Assembly (NCBI RefSeq): GCF_000506985.1
Contig: NZ_KI650981.1
Coordinates: forward strand, 109,122-173,121
Origin: Advenella kashmirensis W13003
GTDB lineage: Bacteria; Pseudomonadota; Gammaproteobacteria; Burkholderiales; Burkholderiaceae_B
Length of the DNA stretch: 64,000 nt
Reading direction: 5' to 3'
In this document: positions 43,889-50,923 of the stretch, in pieces
Layout: every line of letters begins with the position of its first letter
How positions within the stretch are numbered: the stretch's first letter is position 1
The notes under the pieces: model-generated
Seen by the model: only the letters and a program-made list of their open reading frames with translations
Databases searched by the model: none
What the model was told of the DNA's origin: nothing
Program-made: the position numbers and the translations under genes

Positions 43889-43918
43889 TTGACGGATTCA
43901 CTTTTTAAATGTTATGTT
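43889..43918 (+). promoter_or_regulatory. promoter of the TonB receptor/CobN-like operon
   Basis: TTGACG at 43,889-43,894 and TATGTT at 43,913-43,918 are 18 bp apart. The -10 box lies inside the Zur-like palindrome, so a bound repressor would block RNA polymerase. Confidence 0.55.
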
Positions 43919-43928
43919 ATAACATAAC
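43911..43928. promoter_or_regulatory. Zur-like operator, perfect 18-bp palindrome
   Basis: GTTATGTTATAACATAAC equals its own reverse complement. It contains two overlapping 13-mers, GTTATGTTATAAC and GTTATAACATAAC, each one base from the GTTATA-N-TATAAC core of enterobacterial Zur sites as I remember it. It sits about 70 bp before the TonB-dependent receptor. Confidence 0.75.
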
Positions 43929-43998
43929 TTTTTAAAACCAGCCCAATGCTGTCGCGCCTTGTTGAGCCGAGCCCGGGAATTGCAAGTGAATTCGTAAT

Positions 43999-45993
43999 AT
44001 GAATGAGAGATTTACAGCCATCGTCAGCTTATTGGCGCTGATGGCATGGAGCAGTTCGGCCGCGCCCGGCCCATTGGAGGAAGAATCGGAGAGGCGTGCA
44101 CGTCCGCTTGTTTCGGCACCTCCCGGCGACTATGTCATGACCTTGCCGACTGTGGTGGTTACGGCGACTGATAATGAGCGGCAACTGAGTCATGCGCCCG
44201 CCAGTATCACCATTGTCGACGGAGAGCAGTTACGCCGGCGACCCGTCAATGATCTGGCAGATGCCCTCAAAGACACGGTCGGAGTCAGTCTGGAAAATGT
44301 CGGACAGGGACGCAGGGGAATATCTATTCGCGGCATGAGTGGGGAGCATACGCTGATGCTCGTTGACGGACAGCGGATCAGTTCTTCTGCTTCGGCAATT
44401 GCTCATTCCGATCTCGAGTTAGGCTGGGTGCCTGCAGAGGCAATCGAGCGCGTGGAGGTGGTGCGTGGGCCGATGTCGTCGTTGTATGGGTCAGAAGCCC
44501 TGGGCGGGGTTGTCAACGTGATCACGCGCGATGCGACTGATCATTGGGCGGGGTCGCTCAGCAGCTATGCGCTTGCCAATGATCATGGTCTGGGCGGTAA
44601 CCAGTACAAAAACGGCTTTTATATTGGTGGACCGATTGTGCCCGGTCAACTGGGGCTGACCGCCTGGGGGGAGTTCAGGCAGCGCAGTATGTTGCACGAT
44701 GCCACCGATACCGCATTAAGCGCGCTTGACCGGCAACGCGCCCTGACCGGGCATCTCGGACTGAGCTGGACGCCGGATTCCCGGCAGCGTATCGACCTGA
44801 CCGCAGATGCCGTCAACGAAAAACAGGCCGGCGTGCATGGCGGATCTCGCGGGGTCCCATACCGCAGCGAAAACGAAATCCAGCGCCGTCGTTATGCTTT
44901 CTCTCACACAGGGGACTGGAATTGGGGGACCAGCCGGGTCCGTTTGTATCGCAGTACCCTGGACCGGCAGATCTGGCGTAGTGATGGCGATGATGCCAGT
45001 GGTCCCAATCGTTTCGTCGATACGGTGTTGGATACGCAGGCCAGTTTCCGCGTGGGCCCGATCCATAGGCTGACCGTCGGGGGCCAAGTCAGGCGCGAAA
45101 CCCTGGAAGATCCGAATGTAAATCGCAAAGGCAAGCAGTCCCAAAATCATTACGCATTATTTGTGCAGGATGAGATGGCGCTGGGTAAACACTGGGAATT
45201 GGTACTGGGCAGCCGCGTCGACCGGCATGAGGATTTCGGCTGGGAGATCAGTCCTCGCGCGTATCTGCTTTTCCATCCCACGGAACGCCTGACATTGAAG
45301 GCCGGGGTAGGGCGCGGCTTCAAGGCGCCGACGCTCAAGCAACTGTCTCCGGAATTCGAGTCCTGGGCTGCAATGGGTGGACGAGGCGTCATCAGGGGAA
45401 ATCCGGAGCTGCAGCCCGAGACCAATCGTTCCTTTGAGTTGGGGGCGGCTTATGAGACGCAATCGTGGTCGGCCAGTGCGACCTTTTTTCACAATGATGT
45501 ACGCAACCTGATCGATACAGTCAGGCAGCCTGCCTGCTTTGTTCCTGGCCGCGTCTGCCTGGCGTACGAGAATGTCGCCAGGGTCCGCCTGCAAGGCGTG
45601 GAGTTGACTGGCGGCGTGGATTTGTCGCCCCGGTGGCGGCTGGATGCCAATTACACTTATCTGGATGCCCGCGACCGCGTTAGCGGCGGGCCGATGCCTG
45701 ATCGCTCCCGGCATCGCGCGAATGCGACGCTGGCCTGGAAACCGCTGGCGTCCCTGTCTACGCGGGTGCAGCTTGAATACATCGGCGCTCAGCAGCGGGC
45801 GGACGAAGCGGGCAAACGCCCGGGGTATACGCTGTTGCACTGGTATCTGGACTACGCCCTGAATCGCAATCTCAGTGTGCAGGTCGGTGTGGAAAACCTC
45901 AGTGACAAGCGTCTGGCCAATGACGACCTCGCTCTTTACAGTCGAGCCGATGAAGGGCGGCGCTATTTTGTCGGATTAAAGGCACAATTCTGA
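43999..45993 (+). CDS. TonB-dependent outer-membrane receptor, probably for zinc or a metallophore
   Basis: The 664-residue protein has a signal peptide, a TonB box (LPTVVVTATD, residues 49-58), a plug domain with RGMSGEHTLMLVDGQRIS and VEVVRGPMSSLYGSEALGGVV, and a barrel ending YFVGLKAQF with the typical terminal Phe. It resembles CirA/FepA-type receptors. A Zur-like box lies in front, so zinc limitation is the likely inducer. Its stop overlaps the start of the CobN-like gene by one base, so the two are translationally coupled. Confidence 0.93.
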   Translation: MNERFTAIVSLLALMAWSSSAAPGPLEEESERRARPLVSAPPGDYVMTLPTVVVTATDNERQLSHAPASITIVDGEQLRRRPVNDLADALKDTVGVSLENVGQGRRGISIRGMSGEHTLMLVDGQRISSSASAIAHSDLELGWVPAEAIERVEVVRGPMSSLYGSEALGGVVNVITRDATDHWAGSLSSYALANDHGLGGNQYKNGFYIGGPIVPGQLGLTAWGEFRQRSMLHDATDTALSALDRQRALTGHLGLSWTPDSRQRIDLTADAVNEKQAGVHGGSRGVPYRSENEIQRRRYAFSHTGDWNWGTSRVRLYRSTLDRQIWRSDGDDASGPNRFVDTVLDTQASFRVGPIHRLTVGGQVRRETLEDPNVNRKGKQSQNHYALFVQDEMALGKHWELVLGSRVDRHEDFGWEISPRAYLLFHPTERLTLKAGVGRGFKAPTLKQLSPEFESWAAMGGRGVIRGNPELQPETNRSFELGAAYETQSWSASATFFHNDVRNLIDTVRQPACFVPGRVCLAYENVARVRLQGVELTGGVDLSPRWRLDANYTYLDARDRVSGGPMPDRSRHRANATLAWKPLASLSTRVQLEYIGAQQRADEAGKRPGYTLLHWYLDYALNRNLSVQVGVENLSDKRLANDDLALYSRADEGRRYFVGLKAQF

Positions 45994-48900
45994 TGCGGCT
46001 GCAATGTATAAACAGGAGGGTTTGTCAGCAACAGTCGCAGCAATGGGTCCGCCTGATATGCAGTGGCTTGCTGGCGCTTTATTTCAGCCTGATCGCTGCT
46101 AATGTGTATGCGGGACCGGTGGTGCAGGTGCTGCACAATCATTTCGTTTCGGCAGACAAATTTGCGCATTTGCAGCGTATTGCTGCTCAGGAAGACGTGA
46201 CGCTGCAGGCGCTGGATGTAGAGACGGCATCGTCGCAGGAACTCAAAGTAGCGCTTGCCAACGCGGCGTTGATTGTGCTTGATGCGCCCAGGCCGGGTGA
46301 TCGTGCAATGGTCGAGGAACGGCTGGCACAGGCGCGGCAATCGCCGGCTCGCAATAATGACACGCCGCAACTGACGGTGGGCGGTGGCCGACCACAATGG
46401 CAGAATCTGGAAGCGCGCGCGGGAGCCGTCCTCGCCGGGCTATACAGTGTGGGTGGAGAAGACAATTTCCGACGCTTCTTTGCACTGGCCCGTTCTGCAT
46501 CTGAAGGTGAAGAGCCCTCCATTGAACAGTTGAAGGCGCCCGAGCGTGCTGCGGATATCGGTTTCTATCACCCGCAAGCCAGTCGGATTTTCGACAATGT
46601 AGAAGCCTATCTGGACTGGCATGCCACGACCTATTCGCTGGTGGCCACAGGGCAGGGATATTCAGGTCGTGTCGCTTTCCTGATCAGCCGGCAAGTGGTG
46701 ACGGATTTCGTCACCCGCGAGGTGGATGAGCTGGTTCGCCGCAGCGAAACCGCTGGCCTGGTACCGATTGTTTTCTGGGTGGATGCGGACAAACCGGCAG
46801 GACTGGCCGGCGCCCTGCAAAACGCCAGGGTAGACGTGCTCGTCAACCTGACGCATATGCGCGACGGCGCCGCGCGGGCACGCGATTTCAGGACGCTGAA
46901 CGTGCCTGTGATCCAGACCCTGAGTTTTCGGGAAGGTGAAGCGAGCGCATGGCCCGCTGCTGCCAGCGGCGTGAATGCCCGCACCGCTGCCATCTTCCTG
47001 GCTGGCCCGGAAGGCTGGGGGATCAGCGACCCGCTGGTTTTATCGGCCGCCACTGCAGGTGTGGATAATTTGCTGCCGCTGCAGGCAGACGCCCTGATTG
47101 CCAAATTGCAGAGCCTGGTGGCCTTGCGACATACGCCTGCTGCCGACAAGCGCCTTGCATTGATGTTCTGGAATTATCCCGCCGGTGAAAAGAACCTGGG
47201 CGCATCCAATCTGAACCTGCCGCGCAGCGTTGTGTCGATCCAGGTAGCGCTGGCGGCGCAGGGTTACGCGGTCGGTGAGCCGTTAAGCGAAAAGCGCGTC
47301 ATTGAGACCGGACAGCGTATGCTGGGTGCATTATACGGTCGTGTATCCCTGGACGATCTGCTGGCAGACGACCTGGCTGGCCTCTATCCGCTGGCCGATT
47401 ACGAGCGCTGGCTGGCGACGCTGCCTGGCGAACGGCAGGCACAATTGCGTCATCAGGGCCCGCCGGCGCGTCATCATTCGGTGCGCGAGATCGACGGGCA
47501 GCGTTATTTCGTGATTCCCCGGTGGCAGATCGGGCACCTGCTGGTCATGCCGCAAATGCCGCGCCACGCCGATACGGCTGCGCACTATCATGACACCGCC
47601 AGCGCGCCCGACCATCTGTACATGGCCGCGTATTTGTATTTGCAAAAGCAGTACCGTGCCCATGCGCTCATTCACCTGGGCACGCACGGAACACAGGAAT
47701 GGTTGCCGGGCAAGGATCGTGGCCTGGCTGCGACAGACTATCCCTGGCTCGCTGCGGGAGGTCTGCCCATATTCTATCCGTACATCCAGGACAATATCGG
47801 CGAAGCCATTCAGGCCAAGCGGCGCGGCCGGGCGGTCACCATCAGTCACCAGACGCCGCCCTTCGCACCAGCCGGACTCTATGACCAGTTGCGTGACCTG
47901 CATCTCATGATCCATGAGTACCAGCAACTGGATGAGGGCATGGTACGGGATCAGGTAGCGACGCGTATTCGGCAAGCCGCTTTCGCGGCCAACCTGCACC
48001 AGGACCTGGGATGGAGCAGGGATCAGGCCGAAAGCGATTTTGCGGGCTTTCTGCAGGCGGTCCACGATCAATTGCATGAGTTGGCGCGCACGGCCATGCC
48101 GCTGGGGCTGCACACCTTTGGCCAGCCCGCCAGCGCCGCGCATCGTGCAAGCACCATCATGCAGCAACTCGGCGAGCCTTTCTATGCCGCACTTGGTGTG
48201 GACCAAAACGAGCTTTTCACCGCAGACCACGACGCACTGTTGACGAACCCGGCATATCGCGCTGTGCAGCAAATGCTGGACCCAGTCGAAGCGAAGATGC
48301 CGCGCGGCCCCGTCGCCGATTTTGCCCAGCGCGTCAGGGAGCAGGATCGGCGTCTGCGCGACACGCAGGAGAATGAGGCATTGCTTGCCGGGTTGGCCGG
48401 TGGGTTTGTTTTGCCAGGTGCGGGGGGCGATCCGGTTCGCGATCCGAGCGTGGAGAGCGGGCGCAATTTATACGCCTTCGAGGCAGATAAAATTCCTTCC
48501 CGTGCTGCCTACGATGCGGCAGCGACGGCGTACGACCAGTTGGTAGAGACGTTTCGTGCCCAGCACAATGGTGAATGGCCGCAAAAGCTGGCGTACAGCT
48601 TGTGGTCATCCGAAGCAATCCGTCATCTGGGGGTGACAGAAGCGCAGGTTCTGCATGCCTTGGGACTGCGTCCTGTCTGGGACAGCGGGGGTCGGGTCAC
48701 CACTCTGGAGATTATTCCCGTCAAAACGCTGGGCAGACCGCGCTCTGATGTGGTGATTCACGTGACCGGTGTGTACCGGGACCAGTTCGACAGTTTCATG
48801 CGACTGCTTGACGATGCATTGCTGCGGCTGGCAGCGTTGGACGAACCGGGCAATCCCATTGCCGCGAATAACCGGCGTGTCGCAGCGGTGCTGCGGCAAC

Positions 48901-50012
48901 AGGGTATGACGGCGGATCAGGCCGATGTCGCAGCCCGGTATCGTATTTTTGGCAATGAGCCTGGCGCGTACGGCACCGGTGTACCCGATCTGGCGTTGCG
49001 CTCAACCGAGTGGGACGATGATGCCGGACTGGCCCAGCGCTTTCTGGATAGTAGCGGCTATGCCTACGGCACCAGGCAATTGACACAGACATCGACCGGA
49101 ACCAATTTGCTGGCCGAGCAACTACGGGGAACGCAAGCCGCGATCATGTCGCGGTCGTCAAACTTGCACGGTGTGCTTTCTACGGACCATCCGTTCGAGT
49201 TCATGGGCGGTCTCTCGGCGGCCATTCGCCACCTGGACGGCCAGGCGCCGCAATTGCTGATTTCCGATCTGCGTGACAGCCGGATCAGAACTACCGGCCT
49301 GGCCCGCTTTCTTTCCGACGAAATGCGTGGTCGCTATCTCAACCCGCAATGGATCAGCGCCATGCAGCAGGAAGGATATGCCGGCACGCTGCAAGTGCTC
49401 AATGTGACCAATAACCTGTTTGGATGGCAGGTCATGGATCCCTCGACTGTGCGCGACGATCAATGGCAGGCCATGTTCGATACCTATGTCAATGACACGC
49501 GCGAGCTGGGCACGCACCAATGGTTCGAACAGCACAATCCCACGGCCCAGGCGCAGATCATGGAACGAATGGCTGAAGCCATTCGCAAAGGATACTGGGA
49601 CGCACCCGAACAGACCCGGCGTGACCTGGCTGCGCGCTGGCAGCAACTTGACGAGCAATTGGACGTGAGTACCGGCGCACAGGTGACGCGTCAGTACCTC
49701 GCCGATTTGGCCCAGGGGTTTGGCCTGACCTCCGGCCAAGCGCCGCAACGTGATTCCGCGCCAGCCCATCCAGCCCCGCCTGAAAGCTCGACATCAGCGA
49801 AACAAACGACGCAATCTGTGCAGGGACCTGTTCTGACCCGAGTGGAGACGTCTGCCGAATCGGCGCAGGACACGGTGCTGGATACGGTGCTGGCATTGCT
49901 GGTGCTGCTGGCGGCAGGCGTAGCCGGCGGTGTGAGGCAGTGGCGGACGGGTCGCCTCTCGGGCCACGGTAGCAGCATGGGTCCGTCAGGATCCAGCCCG
50001 GACGCCGTTTGA
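45993..50012 (+). CDS. exported, membrane-anchored CobN/magnesium-chelatase-like protein
   Basis: The 1339-residue protein has the CobN/ChlH core, with HLGTHGTQEWLPGKDRGL from His561 and QAKRRGRAVTISHQTPP after it, and covers most of a CobN. Unlike cytoplasmic CobN it starts with an apparent signal peptide (hydrophobic 21-36, site after Ala40 in NVYA-GPV). It ends with a Pro/Ser/Thr-rich linker and a membrane segment near 1296-1314 followed by RQWRTGR. This predicts a periplasmic body with a C-terminal anchor. No cobalamin gene and no CobS/CobT gene is nearby. Co-transcription with a TonB receptor and an ExbB-like gene points to metal uptake; the reaction is unknown. Confidence 0.88.
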   Translation: MRLQCINRRVCQQQSQQWVRLICSGLLALYFSLIAANVYAGPVVQVLHNHFVSADKFAHLQRIAAQEDVTLQALDVETASSQELKVALANAALIVLDAPRPGDRAMVEERLAQARQSPARNNDTPQLTVGGGRPQWQNLEARAGAVLAGLYSVGGEDNFRRFFALARSASEGEEPSIEQLKAPERAADIGFYHPQASRIFDNVEAYLDWHATTYSLVATGQGYSGRVAFLISRQVVTDFVTREVDELVRRSETAGLVPIVFWVDADKPAGLAGALQNARVDVLVNLTHMRDGAARARDFRTLNVPVIQTLSFREGEASAWPAAASGVNARTAAIFLAGPEGWGISDPLVLSAATAGVDNLLPLQADALIAKLQSLVALRHTPAADKRLALMFWNYPAGEKNLGASNLNLPRSVVSIQVALAAQGYAVGEPLSEKRVIETGQRMLGALYGRVSLDDLLADDLAGLYPLADYERWLATLPGERQAQLRHQGPPARHHSVREIDGQRYFVIPRWQIGHLLVMPQMPRHADTAAHYHDTASAPDHLYMAAYLYLQKQYRAHALIHLGTHGTQEWLPGKDRGLAATDYPWLAAGGLPIFYPYIQDNIGEAIQAKRRGRAVTISHQTPPFAPAGLYDQLRDLHLMIHEYQQLDEGMVRDQVATRIRQAAFAANLHQDLGWSRDQAESDFAGFLQAVHDQLHELARTAMPLGLHTFGQPASAAHRASTIMQQLGEPFYAALGVDQNELFTADHDALLTNPAYRAVQQMLDPVEAKMPRGPVADFAQRVREQDRRLRDTQENEALLAGLAGGFVLPGAGGDPVRDPSVESGRNLYAFEADKIPSRAAYDAAATAYDQLVETFRAQHNGEWPQKLAYSLWSSEAIRHLGVTEAQVLHALGLRPVWDSGGRVTTLEIIPVKTLGRPRSDVVIHVTGVYRDQFDSFMRLLDDALLRLAALDEPGNPIAANNRRVAAVLRQQGMTADQADVAARYRIFGNEPGAYGTGVPDLALRSTEWDDDAGLAQRFLDSSGYAYGTRQLTQTSTGTNLLAEQLRGTQAAIMSRSSNLHGVLSTDHPFEFMGGLSAAIRHLDGQAPQLLISDLRDSRIRTTGLARFLSDEMRGRYLNPQWISAMQQEGYAGTLQVLNVTNNLFGWQVMDPSTVRDDQWQAMFDTYVNDTRELGTHQWFEQHNPTAQAQIMERMAEAIRKGYWDAPEQTRRDLAARWQQLDEQLDVSTGAQVTRQYLADLAQGFGLTSGQAPQRDSAPAHPAPPESSTSAKQTTQSVQGPVLTRVETSAESAQDTVLDTVLALLVLLAAGVAGGVRQWRTGRLSGHGSSMGPSGSSPDAV

Positions 50013-50013
50013 C

Positions 50014-50055
50014 GTACGTCGCTTAAAGTACCTCGCTTAAGGTACGCCGCTTAAA
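50014..50055. repeat. three 14-bp tandem repeats between the CobN-like and ExbB-like genes
   Basis: The units GTACGTCGCTTAAA, GTACCTCGCTTAAG and GTACGCCGCTTAAA follow one another directly after the stop codon. They differ by two or three bases. They may come from slippage or serve as a processing or binding site. Confidence 0.7.
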
Positions 50056-50096
50056 TTAGTTCATTCAGTTTTTTCATTAACTCCTTCTTTATCGAC

Positions 50097-50615
50097 ATGA
50101 CCCTTATGGACTATTTTGCCAATATCGAACATTTGCTGTATGCAGTCTCGCGTGTTTTTCTCATGCCGGTCCTGCTTCTGATCGCTTTTTCTCTTTTGTA
50201 TGCCATTGCCATGCTGGGTGCTTTTTTTGTCGAAGGCTGGCAGCGTCGGCGGCAGCCTGGCACGGAGCGATTGCTCAGGGCGACCCGGCAAAAGCTACAG
50301 CGCATGGACATATCCTCTGGCGATATGGAACTGTATATCCTGAAGCGCCTGGAGTGGTTGCGGGTGGTATCACGCACGGCGCCGATGCTCGGATTGATTG
50401 CGACCATGATCCCGATGGGACCGGCACTGCTGGCACTGGGCAATGGCGATGCCACGGAAGTAGGTAAAAATATGGTGGCCGCGTTCTCGGCGGTCATCCT
50501 CGCATTGCTGGCGGCCAGTGTGAGTTTCTTTATTCTCACCGTCCGCCGCCGCTGGCTTTTGCAGGACTTGCAAGAGGCCGAACGGGCCCTGTTATTGCAG
50601 ACGGAGTCGGTATGA
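50097..50615 (+). CDS. MotA/TolQ/ExbB-family proton channel protein
   Basis: The 172-residue protein has an N-terminal membrane segment (VFLMPVLLLIAFSLLYAIAML) and the conserved pair of later segments with RTAPMLGLIATMIPMGPALL and VGKNMVAAFSAVILALLAAS, the signature of ExbB, TolQ and MotA. Such proteins form pentameric channels that turn proton flow into motion of a partner. It overlaps the DUF2149 gene as ATGA, marking that protein as the partner. Confidence 0.9.
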   Translation: MTLMDYFANIEHLLYAVSRVFLMPVLLLIAFSLLYAIAMLGAFFVEGWQRRRQPGTERLLRATRQKLQRMDISSGDMELYILKRLEWLRVVSRTAPMLGLIATMIPMGPALLALGNGDATEVGKNMVAAFSAVILALLAASVSFFILTVRRRWLLQDLQEAERALLLQTESV

Positions 50616-50923
50616 CGCGTTTTCTGGAAGATGATGATACCGATCCCATGTTGTCAGTGGTGAACCTGATCGATTTGTTTTTAGTTATTATCGGGTTGCT
50701 GATGATCGTCATTGCGCAGAATCCGCTGGGTCCCCTGTCACGGGATAACGTGACTGTTGTGGAAAATCCCGGTAAAGAGGACATGCGCATTACGGTCAAG
50801 GAAGGCAAGGAGCTGACACGATACGAATCCAGCGGCGAAGTCGGAGAGGGAATGGGGGCACGTGCGGGGGTAACGTATCGCCTGGATGATGGTCGCATGA
50901 TTTATGTACCTGAGAAAAATTAA
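50612..50923 (+). CDS. DUF2149 protein, probable ExbD-like partner
   Basis: The 103-residue protein has a short acidic N-terminus, one membrane segment (residues 16-35) and a small outer domain. The segment NLIDLFLVIIGLLMIVI places Asp21 where ExbD and TolR carry their essential membrane aspartate (FIDVMLVLLI type). This suggests it is the rotor/stator partner of the upstream ExbB-like protein. DUF2149 has no assigned function. Its stop lies one base from that of the convergent binding-protein gene. Confidence 0.85.
   Translation: MTRFLEDDDTDPMLSVVNLIDLFLVIIGLLMIVIAQNPLGPLSRDNVTVVENPGKEDMRITVKEGKELTRYESSGEVGEGMGARAGVTYRLDDGRMIYVPEKN

What the first reader, a model, noticed from the sequence alone, without database searches (positions are those of the whole stretch)
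43889..50923. Zur-like box controlling a TonB receptor, exported CobN-like, ExbB-like and DUF2149 operon
Seen: a perfect palindrome GTTATGTTATAACATAAC overlapping a -10 box, followed by four tightly linked genes (1-bp and 4-bp overlaps, one 84-bp gap). Known, from memory: Zur sites in proteobacteria have a GTTATA-N-TATAAC core, and a Pseudomonas aeruginosa zinc-starvation operon (PA1922-PA1925) has similar gene types. Inferred: a complete zinc or metallophore uptake system whose mechanism is not described.
Basis: partly seen in the sequence, partly recalled or inferred. Interest (0 to 1): 0.82.

Follow-up and report, generated by a model that had tools for sequence, protein, structure and literature searches.

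The report
Zur-controlled zinc de-chelatase-like operon
A four-gene bacterial operon that looks switched on by zinc starvation pairs an outer-membrane receptor with an exported relative of the enzyme that pulls iron out of heme, which suggests that the cell strips zinc from a captured chelate outside its cytoplasm.

Summary
In detail: the palindrome at 43911-43928, the four genes, both overlaps and the 84-bp gap are as described. The palindrome is very likely a Zur operator. The exact 18-mer occurs three times in the 4.85-Mb genome, before this operon, znuA and zinT; a weaker form precedes zur. In relatives 19 of 29 loci read have it at zur. Related operons from three proteobacterial classes carry it (24 of 32 by script, window included; 0 of 21 others).

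"Complete uptake system" is too strong: no TonB and no inner-membrane permease are encoded. The operon type is known from Pseudomonas aeruginosa (PA1922-PA1925), where its function is open.

I add mechanism. The "CobN" is exported, has a C-terminal membrane helix, carries the active-site set of the heme de-chelatase HmuS (H565, D1065, H1066, E1069) and sits with homologues of HmuU and HmuV. It lacks HmuS's Met-79 ligand and methionine-rich insert. Best reading: a zinc-specific sister of HmuS that strips Zn from an imported chelate, possibly a Zn-tetrapyrrole, in the periplasm, perhaps driven by its own ExbB/DUF2149 proton motor. Substrate, activity and motor coupling are unproven.

The parts
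43889..43918 (+). sigma-70-like promoter TTGACG-18-TATGTT, -10 inside the palindrome
   Evidence: consensus match only
43911..43928 (.). Zur operator, perfect 18-bp palindrome; two overlapping GTTATNNNATAAC cores
   Evidence: same 18-mer before znuA and zinT and at zur in relatives
43999..45993 (+). TonB-dependent receptor, CirA/FepA-like
   Evidence: PF07715, PF00593; best NCBIfam CirA 414.9 bits, below its 745 cut-off; best PDB hit colicin I receptor
45993..50012 (+). exported class I chelatase-like protein (CobN/HmuS superfamily), signal peptide-like N-terminus and C-terminal membrane helix (residues about 1297-1317)
   Evidence: PF02514 968 bits; best PDB sequence hit HmuS 9d26; termini by hydropathy
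46854..46856 (+). His288, aligned with HmuS heme ligand His-254
47685..47687 (+). His565, aligned with HmuS catalytic His-538 (HxGTHG)
49185..49199 (+). Asp1065-His1066-x-x-Glu1069, aligned with HmuS D1208/H1209/E1212; D-D-x-x-Q in two solved CobN and a 15-row sister clade
50097..50615 (+). ExbB/TolQ/MotA-like proton-channel protein, homologue of HmuU
   Evidence: PF01618 E=2e-8; same family in a Prevotella hmu operon
50612..50923 (+). DUF2149 protein, one membrane helix with invariant Asp21, homologue of HmuV
   Evidence: PF09919; alignment A1, 34 rows; helix 12-35

Best explanation
A Zur-repressed zinc-scavenging cassette. When zinc is scarce Zur leaves the palindrome over the -10 box and the four genes are made. 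The receptor, energised by the cell's ordinary TonB-ExbB-ExbD, brings a zinc chelate into the periplasm. The membrane-anchored CobN-like protein, a zinc-specialised sister of the heme de-chelatase HmuS, holds the chelate between His565 and His1066/Glu1069 and releases Zn(II). The ExbB-like and DUF2149 proteins form a dedicated proton-driven stator that acts on the CobN-like protein through its C-terminal helix, doing the job that the ATP-driven CobST or ChlID motors do for cytoplasmic chelatases. Freed zinc passes to ZinT/ZnuA, which share the operator, and the zinc ABC importer. Shown: operator, gene order, export signals, residue pattern, clade. Inferred: repression by Zur, de-chelation, substrate, motor coupling.
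For: Exact 18-mer only before this operon, znuA and zinT in the genome; a weaker site (14.7 bits) lies before the genome's zur. Of 29 loci returned from relatives, 19 are at zur, 6 at other zinc genes, 1 at this receptor (model scores of examples). A matrix trained on 27 other zinc sites scores >10 bits (limit set after seeing the scores) before 24 of 32 operons of this type, window included, and 0 of 21 others. The CobN-like clade is supported (33 rows, SH-aLRT 99). In 33 of 33 rows the His of HxGTHG and the Asp-His pair are kept, with Glu (31) or Asp (2) at the third place; 31 of 33 keep the HmuS His-254 equivalent. N-terminal hydrophobic stretch in 31 of 33, C-terminal in 33 of 33; neither in two genuine CobN. 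HmuS also has membrane segments at both ends. A Prevotella hmu operon has the same ExbB-like and DUF2149 families. No other CobN and no CbiC in the genome. In 21 stretches of up to 11 kb around DUF2149 genes, window included, an ExbB-like frame is present in 21 and a CobN-like one in 20. Trichlorobacter has this pair beside a separate exbB-exbD-tonB. Purified HmuS without its helices and partners made only 1-2 turnovers, which leaves room for a motor.
Against: Met-79 of HmuS is Pro in 33 of 33 and the methionine-rich insert is absent (53-87 residues, at most 2 Met, against 219 with 30 Met in Prevotella HmuS). The D-H-x-x-E set is not exclusive: four rows outside the clade (L103, L042, L083, L087) have it without a Zur box. 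Fold does not favour HmuS: Foldseek ranks HmuS first but the second aligner gives CobN Z 50.6 and HmuS about 41. The receptor is closest to catecholate receptors, not heme receptors. DUF2149 gave no fold match to ExbD and is not found by the ExbD model. Purified HmuS converts some heme without HmuU/HmuV, so a motor is not strictly needed. No recurring neighbour beyond the four genes names a substrate. Six of 32 operons show no good box, nor does the Azospirillum member. The genome holds a CobS/CobT-like pair.
Confidence: 0.5

Rival explanations
1. ExbB-like and DUF2149 are only a dedicated energiser of the receptor (as papers assume for PA1924 and HmuU/HmuV), and the CobN-like protein is a periplasmic zinc-binding or handover protein without de-chelatase activity.
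For: Published view for PA1922/PA1924 and for HmuU/HmuV; the four genes are usually together.
Against: No TonB in the operon, and the genome has its own ExbB-, ExbD- and TonB-family genes; in an Azospirillum cluster the pair stays with CobN with no receptor directly upstream (nearest listed one about 5 kb downstream); in Trichlorobacter it coexists with a full exbB-exbD-tonB; catalytic residues kept in 33 of 33.
Confidence: 0.27
2. A cobalt route: under zinc starvation the operon recovers cobalt, or strips it from corrinoids, to replace zinc.
For: Name CobN; raised cobalt in a P. aeruginosa znuA mutant; cobalt eases zinc starvation there; other members of the wider family lie in corrinoid clusters or behind cobalamin riboswitches.
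Against: Zur-clade proteins have D-H-x-x-E, not the D-D-x-x-Q of two solved CobN, Tsukamurella CobN and Trichlorobacter (Nitratireductor CobN aligned with neither); no riboswitch at this operon; no CbiC in the genome.
Confidence: 0.12
3. An ordinary CobN that works with the genome's CobS/CobT-like pair in B12 synthesis.
For: CobS_N/AAA_5 and CobT pair at about C1:694-697 kb; NCBIfam names the protein CobN, above that model's cut-off.
Against: Export signals; no CbiC; in 151 family genomes only 10 of 28 DUF2149 carriers have CobT_C (34 of 151 carry it; Fisher p 0.08); Zur-type operator.
Confidence: 0.03

Closest known systems
PA1922-PA1925 operon of Pseudomonas aeruginosa
   Same: Same four gene types (as annotated), Zur-controlled; induced 45- to 147-fold in a znuA mutant and Zur binds the PA1922 promoter. 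A Pseudomonas sp. WN033 member with a box lies inside the clade.
   Different: PAO1 sequences were not in my sets, so orthology was not tested directly. Papers call it import of non-chelated zinc or leave it open; the HmuS link is drawn here.
HmuYRSTUV heme de-chelatase system of Bacteroidota (HmuS, PDB 9d26)
   Same: TonB receptor + exported CobN-like + ExbB-like + DUF2149; membrane segments at both ends; H538, D1208/H1209/E1212 and H254 equivalents.
   Different: Zur box; no HmuY or HmuT in the operon; no Met-79; no methionine-rich insert; distant in sequence.
CobNST cobaltochelatase and ChlHID magnesium chelatase
   Same: Class I chelatase fold and HxGTHG-type motif.
   Different: Those are cytoplasmic and ATP-driven; here exported, D-H-x-x-E in place of D-D-x-x-Q of solved CobN, ExbB/DUF2149 in place of AAA+ partners.
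ChaN-type heme cassettes of Burkholderiales (sister clade, L085 and L041)
   Same: Receptor, exported CobN-like, ExbB-like, DUF2149.
   Different: Receptor passes heme-receptor cut-offs, ChaN gene present, D-D-x-x-Q, no Zur box. Another sister-clade member (L102) has a CirA-like receptor instead.

Membership tests
Zur regulon | operator shared with known zinc-uptake genes of the same genome | tested here: met
   identical 18-mer before znuA and zinT, nowhere else; weaker site before zur
Zur regulon | a zur gene in the genome | tested here: met
   FUR-family protein in L148, best NCBIfam match Zur 117 bits, below its 167 cut-off
Zur regulon | operator conserved before orthologous operons | tested here: met
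   24 of 32 by script, window included, 26 with two read by hand; 0 of 21 others
Zur regulon | Zur binding and zinc-dependent expression | not testable with these tools
   needs gel shift and RNA; published for PA1922
PA1922-PA1925-type operon | TonB receptor, CobN-like, ExbB/D-like, small protein, Zur box | tested here: met
   PAO1 sequence itself not compared
HmuS heme de-chelatase | catalytic His-538 and D1208/H1209/E1212 | tested here: met
   33 of 33 for H538, D1208, H1209; 31 E and 2 D at E1212
HmuS heme de-chelatase | heme ligands Met-79 and His-254 | tested here: not met
   His in 31 of 33, Met-79 in 0 of 33
HmuS heme de-chelatase | methionine-rich insertion in domain IV | tested here: not met
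   53-87 residues, at most 2 Met
HmuS heme de-chelatase | complete hmuYRSTUV operon | tested here: not met
   only four genes; flanks are a short-chain dehydrogenase and an opposite-strand solute-binding protein
HmuS heme de-chelatase | releases metal from a tetrapyrrole | not testable with these tools
   needs purified protein
CobN cobaltochelatase | cytoplasmic protein in a B12-making cell | tested here: not met
   export signals by hydropathy; no CbiC
ExbB/ExbD/TonB energiser | ExbD-family partner and TonB in the operon | tested here: not met
   ExbD model finds two other genes, not DUF2149; no TonB among the four genes

The most novel reading that the evidence does not exclude
Proteobacteria take zinc from Zn-tetrapyrroles such as zinc coproporphyrin by running a class I chelatase backwards in the periplasm, and power it with the proton gradient through a dedicated ExbB/DUF2149 stator that couples to the chelatase's own membrane helix: a PMF-driven chelatase in place of an ATP-driven one, with the metal set by the regulator and a few active-site residues.
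Probability: 0.22. Interest if true: 0.85.

Novelty: new member of a known kind. Interest (0 to 1): 0.55.

Why it matters
PA1922-PA1925 is strongly induced by zinc starvation in P. aeruginosa, yet its function is open and its CobN has been discussed in terms of cobalt. If the family are zinc de-chelatases, bacteria have a way to take zinc from chelates, and the open question becomes testable with one purified protein and a few Zn complexes. The ExbB/DUF2149 pair also makes a clear prediction for the uncharacterised HmuU/HmuV.

Tried and rejected
Rejected: chance palindrome; cobalamin riboswitch control of this operon (none); NikR or Fur boxes explaining the sister clade (nothing convincing; both consensus patterns recalled, not from a call). 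Plasmid carriage: no near match in 72,556 plasmids; the protein search of plasmids gave 159 records, all under 60% identity.

Led nowhere: DUF2149 structure (mean pLDDT 61, only the helix confident) and its fold search, so its ExbD-likeness is only a local resemblance around Asp21. Fold comparison could not separate HmuS from CobN. Searching neighbours for a substrate clue found no recurrent gene beyond the four in the clade as a whole (a dehydrogenase recurs in 6 of 35 loci, all Advenella or the window). L050 has DUF2149 and ExbB-like frames without a detected CobN.

Limits: the operator matrix was trained on sites chosen for at most one mismatch to this palindrome, so it favours such sites; the 10-bit limit was set after seeing the scores. 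Dropped rows L076, L080, L081 and L091 do have sites of 11.8 to 29.2 bits in their loci. In L052-L054 the receptor is cut by the end of the fetched stretch, so 18 of the 21 negatives are informative; Fisher p is 1.4e-8 with 21 and 9.4e-8 with 18, ignoring relatedness. One search gave a Fisher value with 20 negatives, a miscount. On the tree the box label needs 7 changes against a shuffled mean of 19.5. Two operons were added by hand: L067 (16.4 bits, just before a split receptor frame) and L059 (34.0 bits, over 1 kb upstream). In one search the ZnuC and ZnuD queries came from L118 and L112 themselves; its automatic count is 27 of 29, but L116 is only a generic ABC hit, so I count 26, one of them this receptor (L109). 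Those 29 loci are what one search returned; 49 other genomes had a match. Residue numbers are 13 too high (stop-to-stop frame); the report uses the 1339-aa protein. In one search the lookup for Ser-1014/1015 failed and those two rows are void.
Full report
What is there. The finding's coordinates are right. A perfect 18-bp palindrome (43911-43928) covers the -10 of a sigma-70-like promoter. Four plus-strand genes follow: a TonB receptor, a 1339-aa CobN-like protein, an ExbB-like protein and a DUF2149 protein, with the overlaps and the gap as stated.

The operator. The 18-mer occurs exactly three times in the 4.85-Mb genome and no further site is within 3 mismatches; the reversed control gives none. 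The other two copies lie before a ZnuA and a ZinT gene. The looser GTTATNNNATAAC alone is not informative (8 against 8 control hits). The genome has two FUR-family genes, one of them Zur-like, near a zinc-permease-like gene and a COG0523 GTPase; before it lies a weaker site, ATAATGATATAACATATC, 14.7 bits. In 151 genomes of the family, own included, 50 have the 18-mer with at most one mismatch; the reversed control scored in one (G409). Of the 29 relatives' loci returned, 19 lie at zur, 6 at other zinc genes (four ZnuD-like receptors, ZnuA, a COG0523 GTPase), 1 at this receptor, and 3 (L114-L116) at nothing I could assign (model scores for examples).

Conservation of the link. The order receptor-CobN-ExbB-DUF2149 is widespread. 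A matrix trained on 27 zinc-gene sites outside CobN operons finds a site above 10 bits before 24 of 32 operons of the window's type (window included) and 0 of 21 others. Adding L067 and L059 by hand makes 26 of 32. Misses: L063, L064, L070, L073, L077, L082. The Azospirillum member, not in that count, has none either. On the CobN tree the window's type is a supported clade of 33 rows from alpha-, beta- and gammaproteobacteria (SH-aLRT 99), mixing classes in a way that suggests transfer (quick method, long branches for HmuS and CobN).

What the CobN-like protein is. By sequence its best solved relative is HmuS. Like HmuS it has a hydrophobic N-terminus and a C-terminal membrane helix: 31 of 33 and 33 of 33 in the clade, neither in two genuine CobN. 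HmuS works with His-538, His-1209, Asp-1208 and Glu-1212 (PMC12583661). The clade has H in 33/33, D in 33/33, H in 33/33 and E/D in 31/2. Two solved CobN proteins, the Tsukamurella CobN, Trichlorobacter and a 15-row sister clade have D-D-x-x-Q there; the Nitratireductor CobN aligned with neither pattern, and four rows outside the clade (L103, L042, L083, L087) have D-H-x-x-E without a Zur box. The heme ligand His-254 is kept in 31 of 33, Met-79 in none, and the methionine-rich insert is absent. So it resembles HmuS in its catalytic residues but is not HmuS by that family's own definition. As an inference from general chemistry, Zn(II) in a porphyrin is content with one axial ligand, so keeping His and losing Met would suit a zinc-tetrapyrrole. 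Fold does not decide: the model is a class I chelatase, Foldseek puts HmuS first, the second aligner puts CobN first.

Not B12. The genome has one PF02514 protein and no CbiC. A CobS/CobT-like pair does exist elsewhere. Across 151 family genomes its presence is only loosely related to DUF2149 (10 of 28 carriers; Fisher p 0.08).

The ExbB-like/DUF2149 pair. A Prevotella nigrescens hmu operon shows that HmuU and HmuV belong to the same two families; a 2026 paper still calls HmuV without homology to a known family (PMC13227078). In 21 stretches of up to 11 kb, the window's included, an ExbB-like frame is present in 21 and a CobN-like one in 20. Azospirillum brasilense has CobN-ExbB-DUF2149 with no receptor directly upstream and a listed one about 5 kb downstream (that gene table is incomplete), and Trichlorobacter lovleyi has the pair next to a separate exbB-exbD-tonB. 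The window's genome has ExbB-, ExbD- and TonB-family genes elsewhere. I therefore favour a motor for the chelatase over a receptor energiser. Cytoplasmic class I chelatases need an ATP-driven AAA+ partner (PMC7689651 passages); the periplasm is held to have no ATP (general knowledge). This is inference. DUF2149 has only a local ExbD-like look (invariant Asp21 in its helix). Purified HmuS without helices and partners did convert heme, but with only 1-2 turnovers, which cuts both ways.

Substrate. Unknown. The receptor resembles catecholate receptors. Two sister-clade operons (L085, L041) have receptors that pass heme-receptor cut-offs and a ChaN gene, a third (L102) has a CirA-like receptor. 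Zinc coproporphyrin III is a real microbial product (PMC6104308 abstract and discussion). No linked gene names the ligand.

Literature. P. aeruginosa PA1922-PA1925 is Zur-controlled and strongly induced, with function undetermined (PMC4542158, PMC8456098, PMC10393844, PMC13083405, PMC11761036, PMC8531726; passages only). One review found Zur control of PA1922 unique to P. aeruginosa within its genus; here a Pseudomonas sp. WN033 operon has a 17.7-bit site, and sites occur in three classes of proteobacteria. Passages of PMC2770081 and PMC545781 do not describe this operon; PMC11481552, on Zur-regulated systems, does not name it under the six terms tried. In eight searches of this library no listing or passage that I read links this operon to HmuS or to a proton-driven chelatase; subscription papers are mostly not held, and a figure in PMC13227078 with operon schemes could not be seen.

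Verdict. Very likely a Zur operon of a known type. The mechanism proposed here (periplasmic zinc de-chelation, probably motor-driven) is supported by residues, topology and gene company, and untested at the bench.

Noticed in passing
window 50014-50055: Three 14-bp tandem repeats (GTACGTCGCTTAAA) fill half of the 84-bp gap between the cobN-like and exbB-like genes.
   Followed up: no
L085 2668-10797 and L041 1773-10004: Sister cassettes in Burkholderiales: TonB receptor passing heme/hemoglobin model cut-offs, exported CobN-like (DD..Q), ChaN-family protein, ExbB-like, DUF2149. Looks like a proteobacterial heme de-chelation system that I have not seen described; L102 of the same clade has a CirA-like receptor.
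   Followed up: partly
L035 5203-5456 and 9765-10015: Two cobalamin riboswitches; the first stands directly before a receptor-ExbB-DUF2149-CobN operon, a likely corrinoid version of the cassette.
   Followed up: partly
own genome, about C1:694-697 kb (L145 5306-8211): CobS/CobT-like pair beside a phosphotransacetylase-family gene, a TPP-enzyme gene and, nearby, a COG0523-like frame, in a genome without CbiC; function unclear.
   Followed up: partly
L138 3498-14907 (Trichlorobacter lovleyi plasmid): Receptor, DUF2162, ExbB-like, DUF2149, CobN, then exbB-exbD-tonB and another receptor, next to corrinoid genes.
   Followed up: no
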